Below, piece by piece: positions 144 to 52,078 of a stretch of 52,282 nucleotides of DNA (its first letter is position 1; the number at the start of each line of letters is the position of its first letter). The stretch is taken from the NCBI GenBank assembly GCA_934655755.1, contig CAKUHA010000009.1, positions 1-52,282 of the forward strand, read 5' to 3'. A program made the position numbers and the translations under genes. This DNA comes from an uncultured Collinsella sp. (lineage in GTDB: Bacteria; Actinomycetota; Coriobacteriia; Coriobacteriales; Coriobacteriaceae). The notes beneath the pieces are model-generated. The model worked only from the letters and a program-made list of their open reading frames with translations, was not told the DNA's origin and did not search any database.

Positions 144-1055
144 ATGCTCAATGCGCTGATTTGGGCGCTTGCCTGTTTTGGCGTCGTTGCTGCCGATATT
201 GCCCTGAGCGTGGTTCTGTTTTCCGCCCTTGGCGTCGCATCGGTGTTCATGGGTTTTTCAATCGACGACCTCGACATTCAATTGCTTCAGGCTGCCACGC
301 AGACGGCGTCGTTTTTGATGGCGCTGCTGTGGTGGCGTTATTTATGGCCGCGCTCGTTTATGGCTCGCTGGCAAAGCGAGCGCCCGCTCGGCGGGGGAAC
401 AAATGCTGCATGGAAGCGCATCGCATGCGTTGTTGTGATCGGCCTATCCATGCAGGTGGCCATTAACTACCTATGCGATGGCGTGCTGTCGCTGCTGCCC
501 GAGGTTGCGGCAGACTATAGCGAGCTCGTCGAGGAAACAGGCATGGGCGATACCAACCTTCTTGCCGTCCTGACTACGGTGCTCGGTGCCCCATTTTGTG
601 AAGAGCTGCTGGTGCGCGGCATTATTTTTGAGTTTTCGCTCCGAGCGTTTAACCCGCAGTGCCGCCCACTTTGGAAGCGCCTGCGTCGCACGCGGGCACA
701 AGACGGCGCCATGGTGCCCTGGGCGGCCCCGAGTACCTGGGGTATCGCCGCGGCGGTCGTGTTGCAGGCGGCGATCTTCGGTTTTATGCACATGAACTGG
801 GTGCAGGGCTGCTATGCAGGTGCCGCCGGCCTCATCTTTGGCTGGGTGCTCGTGACCACCGGAAAGCTCCGCTACACGATCCTGCTGCACTTTGTCTTTA
901 ATGCCGGGTCGTATCTCATGACGTTGCTCTGGTTTGTGAACACGCCGCTCGATGTGGCAATTACGATCGCTATCGCCGGCGCCATCCTCGTTGAGGCAAT
1001 GCGCTCGCTGCGCCACGCGTGTGGGATGGACGCAGCGAGCGCACCGCTGCCCTAG
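144..1055 (+). CDS. CPBP family intramembrane metalloprotease
   Basis: This is a polytopic membrane protein of about 303 residues in the CPBP (CAAX protease and bacteriocin-processing, Abi) family. The family motifs are all visible: EELLVRG (the EExxxR motif), then FGFMHMNW carrying the second-motif histidine, then HFVFNAG as the HxxxN motif. The conserved Glu pair and His residues would form the metal site inside the membrane. An earlier ATG exists at 117, but the start at 144 is preferred because GGAGGAGG ends six bases before it. The gene ends on a CTAG shared with the convergent gene. In bacteria the family serves prenyl-protein processing, peptide maturation or immunity; the substrate here is unknown. 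Confidence 0.85.
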   Translation: MLNALIWALACFGVVAADIALSVVLFSALGVASVFMGFSIDDLDIQLLQAATQTASFLMALLWWRYLWPRSFMARWQSERPLGGGTNAAWKRIACVVVIGLSMQVAINYLCDGVLSLLPEVAADYSELVEETGMGDTNLLAVLTTVLGAPFCEELLVRGIIFEFSLRAFNPQCRPLWKRLRRTRAQDGAMVPWAAPSTWGIAAAVVLQAAIFGFMHMNWVQGCYAGAAGLIFGWVLVTTGKLRYTILLHFVFNAGSYLMTLLWFVNTPLDVAITIAIAGAILVEAMRSLRHACGMDAASAPLP

Positions 1056-3196
1056 TTGCGACGCCCGCCTCCGTTGGCGCCCTGGCGTCCCTGCGCTGCA
1101 CGGTTGCGCCCGGCAGTGTTTTGCGCGCGCGACATGCCGCCGTGCCCCTTGCTGCCTTTAGGCCCCTTGCTGCCAGCACCACCGTGGGCCTTGCCGCCCT
1201 TCTTGCCGGTGCCATGCCCACCGCCAGCAGTCGTCTCGCCCGGGCGCGGCGGCACGGGGCGGATCAGACAATGCTTGGTGTAGCCAATCAGATCGCGGCG
1301 GCCGGCCTTTTCCAGCGCCTCGCGTACCAGCTTGTAGTTCTCGGGTTTGCGATACTGGATGAGCGCACGCTGCATGGCCTTCTCGTGCGGGTCACGCGCC
1401 ACGTAGATCGGCTGCATGGTACGTGGGTCCACGCCGGTGTAGTACATGCAGGTCGACATGGTGGACGGTGTGGGGTAGAAGTCCTGCACCTGCTCGGGCA
1501 TATAACCCATGTCGCGTACGGCCTCGGCCAGGTCCACGGCTTCCTTCATCGTCGAGCCGGGATGGCTCGAGATCAGATACGGCACCACATACTGCTTGAG
1601 TCCGTACTCGCGGTTCAGGCGCTCAAATTTGCGGCAGAACGCGTCGTAGACGGCGCGGCTCGGCTTGCCCATTACGGACAGCACCGCGTCGCTCACGTGC
1701 TCGGGCGCTACGCGTAGCTGGCCCGAGACATGGTGCTCGAGCAGCTCACGCAAAAACTCGTCCGAGGCATCGGCCATGGTGTAGTCAAAGCGGATGCCGC
1801 TGCGGACGAAGACCTTCTTGACGCCCGGCAGCTGGCGCAGGTCGCGCAACAGCTGCGTGTAGCCGCTCTCGTCGACCACCATGTTCTTGCACACACTCGG
1901 CCTCAGGCAGCGCTTGTTCTTGCACACGCCGTGCTTGAGCTGTTTGTCGCAGGCGGGACGGCTAAAGTTGGCCGTCGGTCCACCCACGTCGTTGATGTAG
2001 CCCTTAAACTCCGGGTCGTGCGTGAGCAGCTCGGCCTCGCGCATGATCGAGTCGTGGCTGCGCATCTGCAGCACGCGGCCCTGGTGGAAGGTGAGGGCGC
2101 AAAACGAACACTCGCCAAAACAGCCGCGGTTGGAGCTAATGGAAAACTTGATCTCGGCAAAGGCCGGCACGCCGCCTGCCGCGTCGTAGTCGGGATGCCA
2201 ATCGCGTGCGTAGGGGAGCTCGGCCACCTCGTCCATCTCATCGGTGGTGAGCGTCGCCGACGGCGGGTTCTGCACCACATAGACGCTGTTGGGGTAGGGC
2301 TCTACCAGGCGATGGCCGGTGATGGGGTCCATATTCTGCTGCTGCACATTAAAGCTGCGTGCGTAGTTGAGCTTGTCGGACGAAAGGTCGTCCCAACTGG
2401 GCAGCAGGTCGTAGTCGTAGACCTCGTCGAGCGAGCCCGTGCGGTAGACGGTGCCGTTGATGTAGGTGATCTGGTCGACGGGCAGCCCGGCGTCGAGCGC
2501 GTCGGCGATCTCGACGATCGCGTGCTCGCCCATGCCGTAGATGAGGATATCGGCGCCCGAATCGAGCAACACCGAGCGCTTGAGCTTGTCCTGCCAGTAG
2601 TCGTAGTGTGCCAGACGGCGCAGGCTCGCCTCGATGCCGCCGATGATGATGGGCGCGTCTTTGAACGTCTGGCGGATGAGATTGCCATAGACCGTGACGG
2701 CTCGATTAGGACGGCGCCCCTCCTCACCGCCGGGGGTATAGGCGTCGGTGTGACGACGGTGCTTGGTCACCGAATAATGGTTGACCATGGAGTCCATGTT
2801 GCCGGCGCTGACCAGAAAGCCCAGGCGCGGCTCGCCGAGCACGGTAATGCTGGCGGGGTCGGTCCAGTCGGGCTGGCAGATGATGCCCACCTTGTAGCCG
2901 TGCGCATCGAGCACACGGCTGATGATAGCCATGCCAAAGCTGGGATGATCCACGTAGGCGTCGCCGCAGATGTAGACGAAGTCGCATTGGTCCCAACCGC
3001 GCGCATCCATGTCGGCACGGCTGACGGGGAGGAACTTGTCACGGCCCGGGCGCCAGGGGCGGGCGGGTGCGGCCTTGGAATGCTTGGCGTGGGCGTCGCG
3101 CGCGGCCTTGGTTTTGCCGTCCTGCTTTTGCTGATGGCCTTGCTTGCCCTGTTGGCCGCGCTGGTTGTTCTGAGCGTGCTGAGGCTTTTTTGCCAC
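1052..3196 (-). CDS. YgiQ family radical SAM protein (UPF0313)
   Basis: The protein has about 714 residues and belongs to the YgiQ/UPF0313 radical SAM family. It carries an N-terminal UPF0313 region followed by the radical SAM core, whose cluster motif is RGCFGECSFC (CxxxCxxC). Three further Cys residues occur in the KHGVCKNKRCLRPSVCKN segment and could bind another cluster. The C-terminus is a disordered Gly/Lys/Arg-rich tail, and the N-terminus is Gln/Lys-rich. The chosen start is GTG at 3196, four bases after GGGAGG; upstream in-frame codons run through the palindrome at 3234-3268 and lack a ribosome site. No reaction is established for the family. The stop overlaps the stop of the protease gene by four bases. 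Confidence 0.9.
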   Translation of the reverse strand: MAKKPQHAQNNQRGQQGKQGHQQKQDGKTKAARDAHAKHSKAAPARPWRPGRDKFLPVSRADMDARGWDQCDFVYICGDAYVDHPSFGMAIISRVLDAHGYKVGIICQPDWTDPASITVLGEPRLGFLVSAGNMDSMVNHYSVTKHRRHTDAYTPGGEEGRRPNRAVTVYGNLIRQTFKDAPIIIGGIEASLRRLAHYDYWQDKLKRSVLLDSGADILIYGMGEHAIVEIADALDAGLPVDQITYINGTVYRTGSLDEVYDYDLLPSWDDLSSDKLNYARSFNVQQQNMDPITGHRLVEPYPNSVYVVQNPPSATLTTDEMDEVAELPYARDWHPDYDAAGGVPAFAEIKFSISSNRGCFGECSFCALTFHQGRVLQMRSHDSIMREAELLTHDPEFKGYINDVGGPTANFSRPACDKQLKHGVCKNKRCLRPSVCKNMVVDESGYTQLLRDLRQLPGVKKVFVRSGIRFDYTMADASDEFLRELLEHHVSGQLRVAPEHVSDAVLSVMGKPSRAVYDAFCRKFERLNREYGLKQYVVPYLISSHPGSTMKEAVDLAEAVRDMGYMPEQVQDFYPTPSTMSTCMYYTGVDPRTMQPIYVARDPHEKAMQRALIQYRKPENYKLVREALEKAGRRDLIGYTKHCLIRPVPPRPGETTAGGGHGTGKKGGKAHGGAGSKGPKGSKGHGGMSRAQNTAGRNRAAQGRQGANGGGRRN

Positions 3197-3233
3197 GATC
3201 CCTCCCGGTGTCTGTGTGCTGCACGTAATTGTA

Positions 3234-3268
3234 ACCAGTCTTTTTGGGACGGGGCTAAAAAGACTGGT
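3234..3268. repeat. palindromic repeat, family B copy 1
   Basis: Perfect 12-bp arms (3234-3245 and 3257-3268, ACCAGTCTTTTT and its complement) enclose the core GGGACGGGGCT. The same core lies inside two hairpins with a different stem sequence at 28749-28785 and 28839-28875. It sits between the divergent YgiQ-like and DUF1275 genes. Confidence 0.8.
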
Positions 3269-3446
3269 GGAGTACATGAGGTGTCGGGTGATGGCGCCGT
3301 GCCCGCCGTTTGTTTCCAGACCGTGTATCCCTGCGCTGAAGGGGCCGTCTCGCGCGCATGCCATGTTGTCAATGGGTTACAGTATGAACGGCGGCTATGT
3401 GTCCGCCAACGCACGAGAGGGTCGTCAACAAGGAGGACGCGCGACG

Positions 3447-4163
3447 ATGCAGCGTGCCAAACAGATATCGGAGTCCATCGAACTGGGCATTATCCTGGCA
3501 CTCGCCGGTGGCTTTATGGATGTGTATTCGTACGTGGGCCGCGACCATGTTTTCGCCAACGCGCAGACGGGCAACATCTTGCTGGTGGGCGTGAGTATCT
3601 CGGAGGGCAACTGGGCGCTCGCGGGACGCTACTTCTTCCCCGTGGTGTCGTTTGCCGTGGGCATTATGCTTGCCGACCTGGTGCACGAGCGGTTTGGCAG
3701 CGTGATTCACTGGCGCCAGGTGACGGTGTTCTTTGAAGCCGTCATCTTGCTGGGCGTGAGCTTTATCCCCGGTGGCGGTTACAACCTTCTCGCCAACTGT
3801 CTCACGTCGTTTGCCTGCGGCATGCAGGTTGAGAGCTTCCGCAAGATTCACGGACACGGCATTGCCACGACCATGTGCATCGGCAACCTGCGCAATGCGC
3901 TGCAAAACGTGGACGACTACATCATCACCCACAAGCGCGGCTTTTTGGAAAACGGCCTGCTGTACTTTGGCGTGATCTTTACCTTTGTGTTTGGCGCCGT
4001 GCTGGGCAACTGGTGTATTGAGCGGATGGGCCTGCACGCCATCGCCGTGGCGAGCGTGCTGCTGTTTGTCGCGTTTGCCATCATGTTCATCGACCGCGAG
4101 CGCGACTTGCGCTTCCGCTGGAAAGTTGCGGCCGAGGCCTGGAAAGAGGGCTGTCGAAAGTAG
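3447..4163 (+). CDS. YoaK/DUF1275 family membrane protein
   Basis: This is a membrane protein of about 238 residues in the DUF1275 (YoaK) family. The typical opening is present: a conserved GGFMDVYSYV segment followed by FANAQTGNILLVGV. Several hydrophobic helices follow, with a basic helix (RKIHGHGIATTMCIGNLRN) in the second half. The start at 3447 follows AAGGAGG ten bases upstream and gives the usual family length; a longer in-frame ORF from 3216 would run through the palindrome at 3234-3268. The family's function is not established. The gene stands alone, followed by two hairpins. Confidence 0.85.
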   Translation: MQRAKQISESIELGIILALAGGFMDVYSYVGRDHVFANAQTGNILLVGVSISEGNWALAGRYFFPVVSFAVGIMLADLVHERFGSVIHWRQVTVFFEAVILLGVSFIPGGGYNLLANCLTSFACGMQVESFRKIHGHGIATTMCIGNLRNALQNVDDYIITHKRGFLENGLLYFGVIFTFVFGAVLGNWCIERMGLHAIAVASVLLFVAFAIMFIDRERDLRFRWKVAAEAWKEGCRK

Positions 4164-4172
4164 GGCAGGATG

Positions 4173-4197
4173 TGACAAAGGGACTGTCCCTTTGTCA
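4173..4197. repeat. perfect palindrome with GGGAC core
   Basis: Twelve-base arms TGACAAAGGGAC and GTCCCTTTGTCA flank one central T, a near-perfect 25-base palindrome just after the DUF1275 stop. It has no T-tract of its own. The GGGACTGTCC core recurs in the family A repeats elsewhere in the window. Confidence 0.8.
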
Positions 4198-4216
4198 GAT
4201 AGATCGATAATGGGGA

Positions 4217-4246
4217 GGGGACGGCCATCTCGGCCGCCCCATTTTT
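4217..4246 (+). terminator. rho-independent terminator after DUF1275 gene
   Basis: A GC-rich hairpin (GGGGACGGCC pairing with GGCCGCCCC around an ATCTC loop) is followed by ATTTTT. It lies 50 bases after the DUF1275 stop and marks the left edge of the AT-rich island. Confidence 0.7.
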
Positions 4247-4345
4247 GGAGTCTTAAGCGCTAAGGTGCATGTTTGTAATGACAAGATTTGACGTCAGCAA
4301 AGCGTGCTGCTTGAGGCTATAGAATAAAAATGTCATCTTTCTAGC

Positions 4346-4351
4346 TATAAT
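4346..4351 (+). promoter_or_regulatory. -10 element of the ABC exporter gene
   Basis: A perfect TATAAT lies 22 bases upstream of the ABC exporter ATG. No good -35 hexamer is found 16-18 bases upstream, so the promoter is either -35 weak or activator dependent. Confidence 0.45.
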
Positions 4352-4373
4352 TATTAGTTGAGGGGATGGACAT

Positions 4374-5978
4374 ATGCCAGAGCTTTTTATTCAAAATAAG
4401 ACGACAGTAATCAAGTTGATGGCGCTCTGCATTTTATCTGCCCTGGTGGAGCTGTCTGTTGTTAAAGCTGAATCGTTGATAATAGACTATGGCCTGCTTC
4501 GTTCTAATTATCGTAACGTTTTATACATTGGGTTAGGCCTGCTAGTATTGCTCTCAGTTGAGCTGGTGACAAATCTGTTCAGATCAAAATATGCGGAGCA
4601 ATTGGCTTCCGATGGTGCTAACTGCTTCTATAGATTGCTTGCCCGCCATGCTTTAGAGCGGCCCTTAGTTTTAGCAAAAGACAGTGACTACCTGTTATCG
4701 CGCATTGAAGAGGCTGGGAACCTACAGCCGATGATTGGAATATTTACAACTGCGTTTCTTCCGTGCCTAGTGACGGGTTTGGTATCGTTTGTGGCGCTAT
4801 CTAATATCTCTTTGTTGCTTTTGATTCCTGTTTGTGTTTCGGCATTGTTTATTTCGCTTCTATATCCGTTCGCTCTTAGTAAGCTATCGACTAAGAGCGA
4901 AAAGGCATTGGAGGCCCAGGCGAGGGGTTCTGCTTATTTAGCCCAACTAATAAATTGTCGACTTTACATTCGTATTTCTCGTTCAATTAACTTGGAATTA
5001 CTTCACTATAAAAAGATGCTTAAAGCCTGCAGGAACTCTCGAGTTGAGGAGAGTGTCTTTGCGAGATTGGCAACTGAAATAGTTGACGCTGGCAACATCA
5101 TTACTGGCTTGCTTTCAGTTCTGCTGCTTATTTTCCTTGTGTTAAAGCGCGGGCTGACGGTCGGGATTGCAGTGCAGAGTTATCAACTTGTACTTCTATG
5201 CTATTCTCCTTTTCCTCTTGTTCTGAATTGTTGGGCTCAGCTTCAGCCGTCGTTTAGATCGTTGCACCGTGTCTTGGAATTACGTCGTCTTTTGGAAGCT
5301 GAAAAACCTAATTTGATATGCTTCGATCACGCTGATCGAATTAGTTGGAAAGGAATCAGTCTCTCGTTTTCGTCGAACGAAACTAATGAGAGGATAACAA
5401 TTCCAGATTGCACGATACAGGCACCTTGTCTGGTTTTAGTAAGCGGCCCTAATGCATGTGGTAAATCTTCATTTCTGGAAGTATTGAATGGATTATTGTC
5501 TCCAGTTGCTGGCAGACTGTGTGTTAATGAGTCTACTGTCATTTTCGATGGTTCGACTTTAATCCAGCTACCCTGCGCAACTATGCCGCAAAGACATTTG
5601 ATAATGGGGGGAACTTTCAGGAAGGCTCTTTACTATGGTCTTGTAGATATTGACTCTGAAAAACTCATCTATCTTTTGAGGGGTTTTAGCCTCGATAAAT
5701 TATTTGAATCAAATCCCATCATTGGAGCTAGGGGACACAATTTGTCTGGCGGAGAACTGGCTTCTCTATTACTTTGTAGGGCCTTTCTGAGCAGTTATTC
5801 TATTGTTATTTTGGATGAGCCTTGCAACAATTTAGATAATGCTTCGATATCCTTTTTGAAGGTGGTGGTTGCACAGGAGATGAAAGAGCGAATCGTCATC
5901 ATTGCGGATCATGGACATGGTTTCGAACAATTTGCGGACTATGTAATACAGTTTCAGGAGCCAGAAAAAACTATCTAG
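4374..5978 (+). CDS. ABC exporter (fused permease-ATPase), probable peptide exporter
   Basis: This half-transporter of 534 residues has an N-terminal membrane domain (about residues 10-330) and a C-terminal ATPase. The ATPase has Walker A GPNACGKSS near 358, signature LSGGE near 457, Walker B IVILDEP near 477 and an H-loop region ADHGHG. There is no N-terminal C39 leader peptidase, so any leader removal must come from elsewhere. GAGGGG lies eight bases before the ATG. The gene is AT-rich compared with the flanking chromosome and faces the maturase operon, ending 34 bases from it. From this context it most likely exports the Cys-rich peptide product; the substrate assignment is inference. Confidence 0.88.
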   Translation: MPELFIQNKTTVIKLMALCILSALVELSVVKAESLIIDYGLLRSNYRNVLYIGLGLLVLLSVELVTNLFRSKYAEQLASDGANCFYRLLARHALERPLVLAKDSDYLLSRIEEAGNLQPMIGIFTTAFLPCLVTGLVSFVALSNISLLLLIPVCVSALFISLLYPFALSKLSTKSEKALEAQARGSAYLAQLINCRLYIRISRSINLELLHYKKMLKACRNSRVEESVFARLATEIVDAGNIITGLLSVLLLIFLVLKRGLTVGIAVQSYQLVLLCYSPFPLVLNCWAQLQPSFRSLHRVLELRRLLEAEKPNLICFDHADRISWKGISLSFSSNETNERITIPDCTIQAPCLVLVSGPNACGKSSFLEVLNGLLSPVAGRLCVNESTVIFDGSTLIQLPCATMPQRHLIMGGTFRKALYYGLVDIDSEKLIYLLRGFSLDKLFESNPIIGARGHNLSGGELASLLLCRAFLSSYSIVILDEPCNNLDNASISFLKVVVAQEMKERIVIIADHGHGFEQFADYVIQFQEPEKTI

Positions 5979-5984
5979 CTCCTG
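5955..5984. terminator. weak hairpin between convergent genes
   Basis: CAGGAGC and GCTCCTG form a 7-bp stem around a 16-base loop that includes the ABC gene stop. No T-tract follows on either strand, so a terminator role is only possible. Confidence 0.3.
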
Positions 5985-6012
5985 AACGTTGCTACGAACT
6001 GCTTTTTGCGAT

Positions 6013-6552
6013 TTATTCGAGATGCTCTTCAATCCGAGCCCTCAGAAGGGCAATGGCTGTGGGTATTCCAATTGCGGCGGCTAATTCGGCTTTATCCAAA
6101 ACCTGTATGCTAAAGCACGATCGTTTATCACATTGAAGAACGATAACTGAAGATAGCTTCACTTCCCGTTGGCTGAATATATCGTAATCTCCAAATAGGA
6201 AGTTACCTTTTATTGTGTAATTCGGTATGTTCGTTATGCACTTCATCTCAAGTCTGTTTAGGCCATAATCGAACACCGCAACTTCCTTGTGTTCGATGAC
6301 GAGCGCAACCCTGGGCATGTTACTAAAACCACCGTCGACGACAGTAAAGAGTTTTTCATTTGCATCGTCATAAACGGTATATTTTAGACTCAATAGCTGT
6401 CCTAGTGGACCCGTGAACCCATGTCTTTTGATATTGAGGTTGTCTCCAGCTGGGTTGATGAGAACCAGATCATGCGGATAAGGGTTACCCTCAATTGAGA
6501 TTCGATATTCGTTTGTAGCCGTCTTGCTCGATTTAGGACCAGTAGCCACCAC
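6013..6552 (-). CDS. LURP-one-related (tubby-like fold) protein in the peptide cluster
   Basis: This 179-residue protein resembles the LURP-one-related/YxjI family, with its tubby-like beta barrel. Matching features are YTVYDDANEKLFTV near the N-terminus, YTIKGNFLFGDYDI in the middle, and the closing CFSIQVLDKAELAAAIGIPTAIALLRA, which aligns with the family's final strand and helix. The start is GTG at 6552; a TGA lies two codons upstream in frame. The initiation region overlaps the last 20 bases of the precursor peptide gene, which suggests translational coupling. It is the last gene of the maturase operon. Family members bind phospholipid-like ligands or are uncharacterised. A role in immunity or maturation is speculative. 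The family call rests on pattern memory. Confidence 0.6.
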   Translation of the reverse strand: MVATGPKSSKTATNEYRISIEGNPYPHDLVLINPAGDNLNIKRHGFTGPLGQLLSLKYTVYDDANEKLFTVVDGGFSNMPRVALVIEHKEVAVFDYGLNRLEMKCITNIPNYTIKGNFLFGDYDIFSQREVKLSSVIVLQCDKRSCFSIQVLDKAELAAAIGIPTAIALLRARIEEHLE

Positions 6553-6712
6553 GCGTCATCGCCTCGATCGAATTGGAACCGACTTCTGCTTCGTGCGGAG
6601 AATTGCGCAGTATGTTGCAGTACATGCAGCTGCAATAACCGCATGGGCAATTTCTAATAAAATGAATGACGCTATTTACTGCATGCATGTTAAATGGACG
6701 AATACTTCTCAT
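6533..6712 (-). CDS. Cys-rich RiPP precursor peptide (candidate)
   Basis: This small gene of 59 codons is the likely substrate of the radical SAM maturase. Its ATG at 6712 is preceded by GGGAGG with a six-base gap, the best ribosome site in the operon. The peptide has a short leader ending HFIR, then the core NCPCGYCSCMYCN with five Cys (residues 22, 24, 27, 29 and 32), then a Ser/Asn/Glu tail ending RGGYWS. It overlaps the end of the acyl-carrier-like gene by 23 bases and the start of the LURP-like gene by 20 bases. A second in-frame ATG at 6688 has no good ribosome site. The Cys spacing and neighbours resemble the clostridial CLI_3235/CcpM type of Cys-rich peptide. The modification, probably Cys-based thioether chemistry, is inferred. 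Confidence 0.75.
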   Translation of the reverse strand: MRSIRPFNMHAVNSVIHFIRNCPCGYCSCMYCNILRNSPHEAEVGSNSIEAMTRGGYWS

Positions 6713-7004
6713 GATTTGCCTCCCATTGTTCGATTGTTTCTGACTGTTCTATTACCTTCTTCACCTCCTCAACACTGTTGAACCCTAGGTTTTCAATCGA
6801 CGAGTACTCAACGTAAACAGAAAACCTGCTTTCAAGATAAATTAGCAGTCGAACTAAATCCGATGAGGACAAGTTGAATGGCGGGTCGGTCAATTGCTGA
6901 TTTCTTAGATTTTGGTCAAATTGAGTCAAATCCAAATCTCTAATATTGCTTATCGCTTTTTCGATTTCTGCATAGATGGTTTCATCTTTACAATATGCTG
7001 TCAT
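6690..7004 (-). CDS. acyl-carrier-protein-like peptide maturation protein
   Basis: This 104-residue protein ends in an ACP-like four-helix pattern. FNLSSSDLVRLLIYLESRF (residues 43-61) aligns with the LGxDSLDxVEL...LEexF region of carrier proteins. The phosphopantetheine-type Ser is kept (about Ser47), but the flanking Asp and Leu of the DSL motif are both Ser. The family best recalled is the TIGR04069 acyl-carrier-related protein of peptide maturation systems. It starts inside the stop of the preceding gene (ATGA overlap, 7001-7004), so the two are coupled. Whether it carries a phosphopantetheine arm is unknown. Confidence 0.65.
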   Translation of the reverse strand: MTAYCKDETIYAEIEKAISNIRDLDLTQFDQNLRNQQLTDPPFNLSSSDLVRLLIYLESRFSVYVEYSSIENLGFNSVEEVKKVIEQSETIEQWEANHEKYSSI

Positions 7005-8014
7005 TTCAGCACCCCAATATCGAAATCAAACAACTCGTTCTCGATTGTTTTGCAGCACAGTAATGATTCTTCTGGATCTAAGCTGGCTGAGAAACAGGGC
7101 ATTCCTCTTTGTCGAAGTTCTCTTGCTGCTTGAATAGCTTTATCGCTAGATGAATAGCTTATTTGAAATCTATGCGTCTCCAACCCTTCCGTGGCGTCAA
7201 GTACTTCGTTTGTAATTTCAAATTGAACTTTCTCTGCTTGCGTAAGCGTTTCAATTACGGGCATGAGCCCAAGCATTATGTCGTAGTCGGCTATCGTGTA
7301 TGGGATATTGATAATGGCCAAGTCAGGGCAGAAAGCTCGGCATGCAGCAATCGATCCTAATCCGTAATCACCGAAAATGTGGTCGTCGTATTTCATAAGT
7401 ACATTGGGCATTTCCAATAGAGCTAGGTCGGATTTATCATTCTCAATGATGAGGTTGATTTGCTCATTCATTTTGATGACGGCGGATTGGCCACCATCAA
7501 AACTAAGGGTGTTGCAGCCCCAGATTTCATCTAAAGGATTGAAGCTCAAAGCGCATAGATTGGGATGGTGCTTTCTCATCTCGCTAACGATGCTACTAAA
7601 CGTAATTGTTGAATCGGCGGGTGTATATAGATTCCCGACAATAATTTTTGGTATCAGGGCTAATTCCTGCATGTCGCTTTTGCTAGACTCGATTTGTTCA
7701 GTGGCGAGTTGGCTGACAACCTTCTTATTTACAGAATGAGCATAGGTTTCAGCGTGTTTACTAAATTCTATGAGTCCTGCGGCGCTTTCTTTCGTCGATA
7801 AAACGACAACCAGGTCTGATTCATCGATTGTCGTTACATAGTTAATTCGATTTCTTATGCCAATTTCTTTGCAATTAACAAGGTTGGCAACATCTACGCC
7901 GTCCGGTAGAATGCCGCATGGCGTTGATACCCGGATATCGTAGCCAATTCCTAGCAATCCAATTAGAAGAGGATAGTCAGCTCTCGTGAAAGATATAAGT
8001 CCAATTGTCTTCAT
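7001..8014 (-). CDS. peptide maturation system protein, TIGR04066-like
   Basis: This 337-residue soluble protein has a Rossmann-like opening (MKTIGLISFTRADYPLLIGL) with alternating hydrophobic strands. No cofactor motif is clear. Notable segments are LSFDGGQSAVIKMNEQINL in the middle and DDHIFGDYGLGSIAACRAF later, the latter resembling a conserved FGDYG region recalled from the TIGR04066 peptide maturation family. It lies five bases after the radical SAM stop and overlaps the ACP-like gene by four bases, so it is part of a tight operon. The biochemical function is unknown even for the family. The assignment leans on gene context as well as sequence. Confidence 0.6.
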   Translation of the reverse strand: MKTIGLISFTRADYPLLIGLLGIGYDIRVSTPCGILPDGVDVANLVNCKEIGIRNRINYVTTIDESDLVVVLSTKESAAGLIEFSKHAETYAHSVNKKVVSQLATEQIESSKSDMQELALIPKIIVGNLYTPADSTITFSSIVSEMRKHHPNLCALSFNPLDEIWGCNTLSFDGGQSAVIKMNEQINLIIENDKSDLALLEMPNVLMKYDDHIFGDYGLGSIAACRAFCPDLAIINIPYTIADYDIMLGLMPVIETLTQAEKVQFEITNEVLDATEGLETHRFQISYSSSDKAIQAARELRQRGMPCFSASLDPEESLLCCKTIENELFDFDIGVLK

Positions 8015-8019
8015 GATTT

Positions 8020-9447
8020 TTATCGCTTGTTCCTTTTAAGAGCCGTTGTAATGGACGCTTCGTGTCTATGAAGCTCAAAGCGAAGTATTTTCTGATTAAG
8101 TCGATCAAAGGCAATTCGTTTTGAGTTGTCGCGTGCTGTTCGCTTGTAATCAGGGCTAATTACTCCTTTGCAATCTGCGCTTTTAATGCATTGAGTGCAC
8201 AGCTGAAATGCCCAACATTTTTTACATGAATCGCTGGTCAGCTTTGAAACATTGATTATCTTTTCAATTTGACCTAAATCAAATCCTGAATCCAATGTAC
8301 CGATATACATGTCCTTGGTTGTTTCGCTGACCCTTTCGCAAGGAAGAAGCGCTCCTGCTGTTGTCACAAATAGACGCGTAACTCCTGGCTCGCATGGACC
8401 ACCGGGTATAGCTTTTGTTGGGATGTTCGAAGGTGTAAATCGCTTAATGTTTTGGTTGATGCTTGCAAGCGTATATGAAGCGAGCCTATCGCTGCGGTTT
8501 CCTTTTTCGATCTTGCGCTCGTCCATAATTCTTGCTTTAAATAAGGCGTAATTCAGTTGACTTGAGAACTTGTCATCGTAGGGGGCGATACGTCCGTTGC
8601 GTTCCAAGTAGTTGAATTGAACATCGCAAGCCTTGATATCCTTATCATTTATAAAGGAAGAGACTGTTTTATAGATGTTGTTCGTGTCGACTACGGCATT
8701 AAAATGAATATATTTGTTGCGTTCAGGATGGTTGTCTAAAATCATATGAACATTGTCTATAACTGCTTGGTATGAGGACTTACCATTAGCGTAATGCCTA
8801 GACTTATCATGGATTTGCTGCGGCCCGTCAAGACTGATTAACAAATAGAATTCATGCCCAGAATCGAAGAAGAATTTAACCATATCTTCAGATAAAAGAG
8901 AGCAATTGGTTGTAATTCGAAATGAGATGTGTTTTCCTTCAAATACCTGTTCTGCATATTGAGTAATTAGCTTTATTTCACTAAATCGAAGGAGAGGTTC
9001 TCCTCCATAAAATGCTACGACCGGGTTTGGGTTGTCAATCGAGTGCATCTTAAAGAATTCGATTGCATGTTTAGCCGTCGAAACAGACATGGAGTTATGA
9101 CTGTGGGTTCTGTTGTATAAGGAGTTTTCGGAATAGATACAGTAATCACATCGGAAGTTGCAAGATTGAGTCAGCTGAAGGGTTATCATCCGTAAATTTC
9201 TTTCCAGCTTAACTTTCAAAAGGTCAATTGATGGATAAGCGATATCCTGCAATGGCGAATCGCAGCAGTAGCCACATGATTGTAGTAACTGGAATTCTTG
9301 GTCTGATTTATAGGAGGCGGGGCAAACTTCGCCTGCCTGGACTTCTGAGATGTAATTGAAGAGATCTTTGCTTACTGCAAGTATCTCGTTTCGATTGGCA
9401 TCATAAATGTAGTGGCCCAAGAGGGTCTTTATGGGTAGAACTAACAT
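8020..9447 (-). CDS. SPASM radical SAM peptide maturase, CcpM-like
   Basis: The protein has about 475 residues. An N-terminal domain with a CGYCC patch could be the peptide recognition element. It is followed by the radical SAM motif QSCNFRCDYC (CxxxCxxC) and the GGEPL motif. A C-terminal SPASM domain has GPCEPG, LPCERV and DSCKKCWAFQLCTQC cysteines for auxiliary clusters. The ATG at 9447 is preferred over the one at 9465, because AGAGG lies eight bases before it and a palindrome abuts the earlier codon. It is the first gene of the minus-strand operon. By family and context it probably installs a thioether or other Cys-centred link in the adjacent peptide; the exact reaction is unknown. Confidence 0.85.
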   Translation of the reverse strand: MLVLPIKTLLGHYIYDANRNEILAVSKDLFNYISEVQAGEVCPASYKSDQEFQLLQSCGYCCDSPLQDIAYPSIDLLKVKLERNLRMITLQLTQSCNFRCDYCIYSENSLYNRTHSHNSMSVSTAKHAIEFFKMHSIDNPNPVVAFYGGEPLLRFSEIKLITQYAEQVFEGKHISFRITTNCSLLSEDMVKFFFDSGHEFYLLISLDGPQQIHDKSRHYANGKSSYQAVIDNVHMILDNHPERNKYIHFNAVVDTNNIYKTVSSFINDKDIKACDVQFNYLERNGRIAPYDDKFSSQLNYALFKARIMDERKIEKGNRSDRLASYTLASINQNIKRFTPSNIPTKAIPGGPCEPGVTRLFVTTAGALLPCERVSETTKDMYIGTLDSGFDLGQIEKIINVSKLTSDSCKKCWAFQLCTQCIKSADCKGVISPDYKRTARDNSKRIAFDRLNQKILRFELHRHEASITTALKRNKR

Positions 9448-9465
9448 CTCTACCGCCTCTTTCAT

Positions 9466-9487
9466 TTCACTAATGTTATTTAGTGAA
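9466..9487 (-). promoter_or_regulatory. palindromic operator candidate before the maturase operon
   Basis: TTCACTAA and TTAGTGAA form perfect 8-bp arms around a 6-base centre, 19 bases upstream of the preferred maturase start. The position, downstream of the promoter, suits a repressor site. No regulator gene lies in the cluster. Confidence 0.5.
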
Positions 9488-9500
9488 CTAAGATGTTTTC

Positions 9501-9533
9501 TAAAAGGTATCCATTTATAAACGTATTGTCAAA
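9501..9533 (-). promoter_or_regulatory. promoter of the peptide maturase operon
   Basis: On the minus strand a consensus TTGACA is followed 17 bases later by TACCTT, a weak -10. The surroundings are AT-rich and the element lies about 60 bases upstream of the maturase start. Confidence 0.45.
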
Positions 9534-9766
9534 CATATATTGCTAAAACAGAAACAATTTATAGACTGAGTTGGTCGTATTCTTTGGACGATTGCTCCTA
9601 TAATCTAGCCTTCGCTGCTGTCGGGAGGAAGGGCTAGGGCTCCGTTATTATGTTGAAACGCTTTAACAATTTTGACGTTCTCGCGATACTTTCGTTTCAA
9701 AAGCGTTAGGATGGGACTCATAGCGTGGGGCGTAATGGGTGCCCCACACACGATGGGAGGCTATCA

Positions 9767-51223: not shown

Positions 51224-52078
51224 ATGGCTGATCTGCTAAAGGGTGCTCCCGTCGCCCGTGCGTTGACTGAGGAACTCGCTGCCCGCTGCACCGCCCTGCG
51301 CGAACAGGGCGTTGTTCCGACGCTTGCTATCGTGCGTGTGGGCGAGCGCGAGGACGACCTGTCCTACGAGCGTGGCGCCCTCAAGCGCTGCGAAAAGGTG
51401 GGCATCGAAGCTCGCCGCGTTTTGCTTCCTGCCGATGTTTCGCAGGACGAGTTGTTGGCGGCGATCGGGGACATCAATGCCGATTCGGCTGTTCATGGCT
51501 GCCTGCTGTTCCGTCCGCTGCCCGCCGGCCTTGACGAGGACGCCGTTGCCGCGGCGCTCAATCCCGCCAAGGACGTTGATTCCATGACGCCGGCATCGCT
51601 GCTTACGGCGCTTTCGGGTCGCGGCGAGGGTTTTGCCCCTTGCACGGCCGAAGCCGTTCTGGCGATTCTGGATCACTATGGCGTTGAGCTGGACGGTGCC
51701 AAAGTTGCCGTTGTCGGTCGCTCGCTGGTGATCGGGCGTCCTGTTGCCGCCATGCTTACGGCACGCAATGCTACGGTGACGACATGCCACACGCACACGC
51801 GCGACCTTGCTGCCGAATGCCGTGCTGCCGATATTGTCGTTGCCGCGGTTGGACGCGCACGCACGATTGGCGCGGATGCGGCTCGCGAGGGCCAGACGGT
51901 CATCGATGTGGGCATTAACTGGGATGAGGCCGCCGACAAGTTGGTCGGCGACGTCGATTTTGATGCCGCGGAGCCGATTGTTGGCGCAATCACGCCCGTC
52001 CCGGGTGGCGTGGGCGCCGTGACGACGGCGATTCTCGCCAAGCACGTGATCGAGGCGGCTGAGCGCGCGGCAAAATAG
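51224..52078 (+). CDS. folD: methylene-THF dehydrogenase FolD, cyclohydrolase-deficient type
   Basis: The 284-residue protein has the two-domain FolD fold. The NADP-binding site is visible in VVGRSLVIGRPVAAML and the C-terminal PVPGGVGAVTTAIL loop is intact. In the active site LSYERGALKRCEKVGI keeps Tyr48, but the lysine four residues on (Lys54 in E. coli) is Ala52; the later Lys54 matches E. coli Lys56. That lysine is needed for cyclohydrolase, so this is probably a dehydrogenase only. GAGGGG lies eight bases before the ATG, and fchA ends two bases upstream. Confidence 0.92.
   Translation: MADLLKGAPVARALTEELAARCTALREQGVVPTLAIVRVGEREDDLSYERGALKRCEKVGIEARRVLLPADVSQDELLAAIGDINADSAVHGCLLFRPLPAGLDEDAVAAALNPAKDVDSMTPASLLTALSGRGEGFAPCTAEAVLAILDHYGVELDGAKVAVVGRSLVIGRPVAAMLTARNATVTTCHTHTRDLAAECRAADIVVAAVGRARTIGADAAREGQTVIDVGINWDEAADKLVGDVDFDAAEPIVGAITPVPGGVGAVTTAILAKHVIEAAERAAK

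What the first reader, a model, noticed from the sequence alone, without database searches (positions are those of the whole stretch)
6533..6712. Short Cys-rich precursor peptide gene in the AT-rich radical SAM cluster
The 59-codon frame has a GGGAGG ribosome site, overlaps both neighbouring genes and encodes CPCGYCSCMYC. It is the only Cys-dense frame in the operon that fits a substrate. Its size and overlaps mean automated callers would usually miss it. With the SPASM maturase, TIGR04066-like and ACP-like genes and the ABC exporter, this forms a complete RiPP candidate not, to my knowledge, described from Coriobacteriia.
Basis: partly seen in the sequence, partly recalled or inferred. Interest (0 to 1): 0.88.

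Follow-up and report, generated by a model that had tools for sequence, protein, structure and literature searches.

The report
Collinsella Cys-rich RiPP precursor and remnants
A tiny cysteine-rich gene in a gut Collinsella bacterium is probably the raw material of a modified peptide made by a divergent version of a known bacteriocin-type system, and several sister species have lost the peptide-making machinery while keeping a neighbouring gene that may protect against the peptide.

Summary
Minus strand 6712-6533 encodes 59 aa with CPCGYCSCMYC, a GGGAGG site 6 nt upstream, and overlaps with both neighbours. It is the only Cys-dense frame in the cluster; 2 of 300 shuffles give one of 50 aa or more. 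A Collinsella aerofaciens cluster keeps 58 of 59 residues. The neighbours are divergent relatives of the known CcpM system (TIGR04068, TIGR04066, TIGR04069), all below curated cut-offs. The peptide misses that system's precursor family TIGR04065, which precursors of two other CcpM clusters match. So: a variant of a known kind (SacP23 of Paenibacillus), without a protease. New here: of 21 close Collinsella genomes, 1 has the full cluster, 15 an empty site, and 5 keep only the peptide's Cys block and tail plus the 179-aa gene. In those 5 the 179-aa frame is open (4 in full, 1 to a contig end) and shows purifying selection. Its model resembles the LURP-one/tubby fold. I read it as a candidate immunity protein kept after production was lost; that step is inference.

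The parts
6533..6712 (-). 59-aa Cys-rich peptide gene, proposed precursor; Cys block CPCGYCSCMYC at residues 22-32
6719..6724 (-). GGGAGG ribosome-binding site, 6 nt before the ATG
   Evidence: read
6013..6552 (-). 179-aa protein with LURP-one/tubby-like predicted fold; candidate self-immunity protein
6690..7004 (-). 104-aa acyl-carrier-like protein (TIGR04069, 34 bits, cut-off 70)
7001..8014 (-). 337-aa TIGR04066-like protein (40.5 bits, cut-off 200; residues 179-328 only)
8020..9465 (-). 481-aa radical SAM/SPASM maturase, CcpM-like (TIGR04068, 412 bits, cut-off 500); the second Met at codon 7 may be the true start (read by eye)
4374..5978 (+). 534-aa ABC exporter (permease plus ATPase), convergent with the operon, without the peptidase domain of its best family
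5953..5986 (.). inverted repeat TTCAGGAGC...GCTCCTGAA, likely terminator shared by the exporter and the 179-aa gene; kept in the remnant loci. Not listed by the terminator scan
   Evidence: read by eye; not listed
9504..9532 (-). TTGACA, 17 nt, TACCTT: possible operon promoter; the region is also kept in the 5 remnant loci. Not listed by the promoter scan (second hexamer weak)
   Evidence: not listed

Best explanation
6712-6533 is the precursor gene of a radical-SAM-modified RiPP. Shown: the ORF, its ribosome site, its conservation in the one other full cluster fetched, and its place in a CcpM-type operon. Inferred: the peptide's N-terminal part (about residues 1-21) is bound by the N-terminal domain of the maturase, which links the five Cys (22, 24, 27, 29, 32) to residues of the tail (33-59) by thioether bonds; the TIGR04066-like and ACP-like proteins assist; a protease encoded elsewhere removes the leader; the 534-aa ABC protein exports the product, probably an antibacterial peptide; the 179-aa LURP-one-fold protein, last in the operon, protects the producer. 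Some sister species lost the biosynthesis and export genes by deletion but kept the operon's upstream region, the peptide's Cys block and tail, and the 179-aa gene, as expected of protected non-producers.
For: Operon families. Radical SAM and SPASM Cys invariant in 16 of 16 aligned maturases, the window's included; the profile matches solved enzyme 5wgg over positions 3-284. Only Cys-dense ORF in 4160-9760. Same order and 58 of 59 peptide residues in L001. Two metagenome variants with the native start keep all 5 Cys. Two other CcpM clusters carry a 65-aa peptide with a mid-peptide Cys block. No TIGR04065 precursor above cut-off in G001, the genome of the full cluster; best 13.6 bits against 26. 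The 179-aa gene is present in 5 of 5 remnant genomes, in which no match was found for the maturase (E up to 1e-45), the exporter (1e-60) or the TIGR04066-like protein (0.001). Among those five it shows 12 synonymous and 7 amino-acid changes where 27% synonymous is expected (P about 0.001).
Against: The peptide matches no family, and its alignment scores to five other precursors are no better than shuffles that keep Cys positions (P 0.26 to 0.95). In the full clusters DNA-level purifying selection on the peptide cannot be shown: one change, non-synonymous, between window and L001. Across all seven sequences its variable sites fall 3, 4, 4 by codon position, as under neutrality, though five of the seven are remnants. 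No separate protease gene among the six proteins. All shared families are below cut-off. The immunity role rests on position, retention and fold only; the ACP-like gene was not searched genome-wide.
Confidence: 0.7

Rival explanations
1. The maturase acts on a peptide encoded elsewhere, and 6533-6712 is a non-precursor ORF whose role is to couple translation into the 179-aa gene.
For: No match to a precursor family; in remnants the tail leading into the 179-aa gene is kept while the native start is lost; metagenome variants P0006 and P0007 lack the Cys block but keep the last residues.
Against: G001 has no TIGR04065 peptide above cut-off. A 5-Cys block in an ORF of 50 aa or more is rare by chance (2 of 300). 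Ribosome site in place, and all 5 Cys kept in the four native-start proteins seen (window, L001, P0003, P0004).
Confidence: 0.18
2. The peptide is a RiPP precursor but the product is not antibacterial (for example a signal or metal-binding peptide), and the 179-aa protein is a processing or lipid-related factor with its own role.
For: LURP-one/tubby-fold proteins are lipid-associated in eukaryotes (recalled); the 179-aa protein matched no immunity family, nor any other; for the Roseburia cluster PMC4573289 (section 10) calls the antimicrobial potential unclear.
Against: SacP23, the one tested relative that I found, is antibacterial (PMC10731318, title). A relative of the 179-aa protein in G342 lies behind an ABC ATPase whose best family is lantibiotic protection (128.9 bits, below its cut-off of 309.75).
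Confidence: 0.25
3. The cluster is decaying everywhere and makes nothing.
For: 15 of 21 close genomes have an empty site and 5 of 21 a remnant; the peptide carries a late stop in 3 of 5 remnants.
Against: In window and L001 all six genes are open. Between the two, change per site is lower at amino-acid than at synonymous sites in the maturase, TIGR04066-like, ACP-like, 179-aa and exporter genes (exporter 8 synonymous and 2 not; maturase 8 and 12). The largest maturase cluster has 2338 catalogue members.
Confidence: 0.07

Closest known systems
SacP23 cluster of Paenibacillus polymyxa (CLI_3235 family; TIGR04065, 04068, 04066, 04069)
   Same: Precursor of about 60 aa with a Cys-rich core, CcpM maturase, TIGR04066 and TIGR04069 proteins, ABC transporter (PMC10731318; section 17 read, passages of sections 16 and 17)
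   Different: None of the six proteins here is a sigma factor or a subtilase; precursor outside TIGR04065; shared proteins below cut-offs; extra LURP-one-like gene; host an actinobacterium
CcpM clusters on human faecal contigs L153, L154, L155
   Same: Maturase (TIGR04068 550.6, 585.1 and, cut by the contig end, 402.3 bits) followed by a TIGR04066 gene over cut-off in 3 of 3; TIGR04069 gene next in L154; 65-aa Cys-block peptides in L153 and L155
   Different: Peptide upstream of the maturase (L153) or behind the transporter (L155), not between the ACP-like gene and a LURP-one gene; leader with LGKK (by eye); Peptidase_S8 gene in L153 and L154
Roseburia intestinalis L1-82 cluster (PMC4573289, section 10 read)
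   Same: TIGR04068, TIGR04066, TIGR04069 and ABC transporter
   Different: Subtilase present; no structural gene was found there
Arabidopsis protein At5g01750 (PDB 1zxu; LURP-one-related, recalled) and tubby C-terminal domains
   Different: 14% and 10% identity; no Pfam LOR match for the window protein; function in bacteria not known to me

Membership tests
TIGR04065 CLI_3235 precursor | Profile score of at least 26 bits | tested here: not met
   No match at E up to 10 for P0002 and P0005; L153 and L155 peptides score 32.8 and 35.1
TIGR04068 CcpM maturase | Profile score of at least 500 bits | tested here: not met
   412 bits over 12-456; next family 182 bits. L153 550.6, L154 585.1
TIGR04068 CcpM maturase | Radical SAM CX3CX2C and SPASM-region cysteines | tested here: met
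   C102, C106, C109, C358, C376, C414, C417, C423, C426 invariant in 16 of 16 aligned sequences
TIGR04066 | Profile score of at least 200 bits | tested here: not met
   40.5 bits, residues 179-328 only; L153 245.2, L154 454.9, L155 252.3
TIGR04069 | Profile score of at least 70 bits | tested here: not met
   34 bits; L154 104.3 bits
CLI_3235/SacP23-type cluster | Maturase, TIGR04066-like, ACP-like and transporter genes together | tested here: met
CLI_3235/SacP23-type cluster | Protease in the cluster | tested here: not met
   No peptidase in Pfam at E up to 1; exporter match starts after the peptidase domain of NF045998 (25 of 167 families shown). L153 and L154 have Peptidase_S8
Sactipeptide or ranthipeptide | Thioether from Cys to an alpha or non-alpha carbon | not testable with these tools
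   needs mass spectrometry or NMR
LURP-one-related (PF04525) | Pfam score of at least 24.5 bits | tested here: not met
   No match for the window protein; relative P0148 12.7 bits
LURP-one/tubby fold | Model superposes on a solved member over most of its length | tested here: met
Bacteriocin immunity protein | Protects cells from the product | not testable with these tools
   needs a sensitivity assay

The most novel reading that the evidence does not exclude
A LURP-one/tubby-fold protein is the dedicated self-immunity factor of a CcpM-type RiPP, and gut Collinsella carry it as orphan immunity: producers, protected non-producers and empty strains coexist at one chromosomal site.
Probability: 0.35. 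Interest if true: 0.68.

Novelty: new variant of a known kind. Interest (0 to 1): 0.5.

Why it matters
Collinsella aerofaciens is a common human gut actinobacterium (recalled), and I found no RiPP of this kind described from its class in the searches made. The three-state site (full, remnant, empty) gives a natural test of which gene confers immunity, and could give a bacterial function to the LURP-one/tubby fold. It also suggests that precursors of CcpM-type systems can lie outside the family model TIGR04065, so such clusters may go unnoticed.

Tried and rejected
Leader ORF in remnants: the 66-aa frame MFDNTFIK... that gene callers report (P0005) looked like a fusion protein; its ATG overlaps a TTGACA hexamer and has no ribosome site by eye, so I treat that N-terminus as a likely gene-calling artefact. 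The promoter scan did not list the site, so the promoter is unproven.

Insertion instead of deletion: judged less likely, not excluded. G147 and G151 keep window 5939-5978, the last 40 nt of the exporter gene, of which about 14 nt lie outside the shared inverted repeat. G315 and G205 keep 5953-5978, which coincides with that repeat and is a weaker scar; in G105 the locus is split over two contigs and the second begins its match at 5953 too (L141). The maturase-side junction has the same spacing in 5 of 5; the exporter-side junction differs between G147/G151 and G315/G205/G105. In three CcpM relatives maturase and TIGR04066 gene also stand together, which speaks for the full cluster as the older state.

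Similarity of CGYCSC to CAWCSC of P0128 (Paraclostridium): not significant.

Full report
WHAT IS THERE. GGGAGG sits 6 nt before the ATG. Overlaps are 23 nt with the gene before and 20 nt with the gene after. The 1-kb blocks from 4 to 10 kb have 40-46% GC against about 60-66% on either side. Within 4160-9760 it is the only ORF of 30 aa or more with 5 Cys in 11 residues; shuffled sequence gives one of at least 30 aa in 5 of 300 trials and one of at least 50 aa in 2 of 300.

NEIGHBOURS. In order of transcription: maturase 9465-8020, 337-aa protein 8014-7001, 104-aa protein 7004-6690, the peptide, a 179-aa protein 6552-6013; the exporter 4374-5978 converges from the other side. Best NCBI families are TIGR04068 (412 bits, cut-off 500), TIGR04066 (40.5, cut-off 200) and TIGR04069 (34, cut-off 70). 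The peptide and the 179-aa protein match nothing at E up to 1. The exporter has an ABC ATPase and a weak permease match in Pfam and no peptidase; its best NCBI family is a peptidase-domain exporter, matched only from position 148 on.

RELATIVES OF THE MATURASE. A scan of genome contigs with the single protein, which finds close relatives only, gave one: C. aerofaciens NZ_SPFY01000012.1 (L001, 98%), with the same gene order and 58 of 59 peptide residues. In 396 genomes drawn from its class, 1 (this one) has the maturase at E up to 1e-50; in its genus, 1 of 43 at E up to 1e-45. In the protein catalogue, after four near-identical proteins (95-99%), the best is 44% identical, and several named ones are CcpM of Clostridia (450 proteins at E up to 1e-40, 120 listed). 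Closest solved structure by profile is 5wgg; that this is CteB, a thioether-forming maturase, is recalled.

OTHER CcpM CLUSTERS. Four faecal contigs in the phage collection encode relatives. Three are CcpM clusters: TIGR04068 550.6 bits (L153), 585.1 (L154) and 402.3 (L155, cut by the contig end), each followed by a TIGR04066 gene over cut-off; L154 also has a TIGR04069 gene (104.3 bits), and L153 and L154 a Peptidase_S8 gene. The fourth, L156, is a lachnocin-type maturase. L153 and L155 carry peptides that pass TIGR04065 (32.8 and 35.1 bits, cut-off 26), while the window peptide and its remnant form P0005 give nothing at E up to 10. L154 starts just before the maturase, so its precursor cannot be seen. 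The window peptide shares with them length (59 against 65), a Cys block after about 20 residues and an aromatic, glycine-bearing end (by eye), but no significant alignment: P 0.48 and 0.27 when Cys positions are kept. So it is placed like a CLI_3235 precursor but is not a member of that family.

REMNANT LOCI. Searching 396 genomes with P0005 gave six strong hits: G001 and five genomes (G147, G151, G315, G205, G105); 131 genomes had some match at E up to 1, but the next best was 0.008. The five gave no match for the maturase, the TIGR04066-like protein or the exporter at the limits used. Of 43 genus genomes, 38 have the flanking gene at 3430-4160; the 21 with at least 92% identity to it split into 1 full (G001), 5 remnants and 15 empty. 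In the 15 empty ones window position 4192-4247 is followed by 9648-9651. In G147 and G151 the order is 4194, then 5939-6693, then 9497 onward. In G315, G205 and G105 the maturase-side break is alike (6690-6692 to 9500-9501), but the other side runs 4110, a piece 4248-4278, then 5953; G105 is split over two contigs. The former upstream region of the operon is thus joined to codon 7-9 of the peptide, the native start and ribosome site are gone, and the 179-aa gene follows. All five Cys are kept in 5 of 5, but 3 of 5 have a stop three codons before the end. The 179-aa frame is open in full in 4 of 5 and over 163 residues in G105, which ends at a contig end. I read the remnants as deletions from a full cluster; the exporter scar is clear in G147 and G151 and weaker in the others (see Tried and rejected).

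SELECTION. Among the five remnants the 179-aa gene has variable sites 3, 4, 12 by codon position and 12 synonymous against 7 amino-acid changes, where random change would give 27% synonymous (P about 0.001; relatedness is not modelled, and changes older than the deletion, if any, would count too). For the peptide the variable sites are 2, 1, 3 (remnants) and 3, 4, 4 (all seven), which is neutral-like with little power. So in remnants the 179-aa gene is what selection keeps; the peptide tail may be a passenger or serve coupling. Two more catalogue proteins, P0006 and P0007, lack the Cys block but keep the tail that runs into the 179-aa gene; one more, P0005, has a Cys changed to Arg. Their DNA was not seen. 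The four largest 179-aa clusters hold 1085, 858, 282 and 1681 members (sum 3906), more than the largest maturase cluster (2338), in line with many maturase-less loci; catalogue counts are rough.

MECHANISM AND LIMITS. Shown: gene order, homology, conservation, the three states of the site, selection on the 179-aa gene. Inferred: modification by the maturase, thioether chemistry, leader removal by an outside protease, export, antibacterial action, immunity, and the direction of the change. SacP23 is the tested precedent (PMC10731318: title, section 17, passages of sections 16 and 17). Roseburia has a similar cluster without a found precursor (PMC4573289, section 10 and passages).

VERDICT.

Noticed in passing
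window 9465-9447, minus strand: The first ATG of the maturase frame may be 6 codons too early: GAGGCGG precedes a second ATG, and the nearest relatives are 474-476 aa long (by eye).
   Followed up: no
window 6690-7004, minus strand: The ACP-like protein has a serine run (NLSSSDL) near the carrier-serine position, whereas L154's TIGR04069 protein seems to lack Ser there; read by eye.
   Followed up: no
L117:4816-8362: In G342, near the same flanking genes, two permease-like ORFs (no Pfam match), a lantibiotic-protection-like ABC ATPase, an unknown gene and a distant relative of the 179-aa protein: possibly another peptide-immunity unit.
   Followed up: partly
P0006, P0007 (catalogue proteins): Variants that lost the Cys block but keep the last residues before the 179-aa gene.
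   Followed up: partly
L017:4589-6021: A viral contig carries a radical SAM gene split in two ORFs among phage genes; its first piece fits TIGR04068 best (177 bits).
   Followed up: partly
window 51784-51918, plus strand: 44-aa frame with 5 Cys in 11 residues in GC-rich sequence; probably chance.
   Followed up: no
window 1052-3364, minus strand: Large radical SAM protein of YgiQ type (recalled name) close by; parts of it match in genomes with an empty site, so it is not part of the cluster.
   Followed up: no
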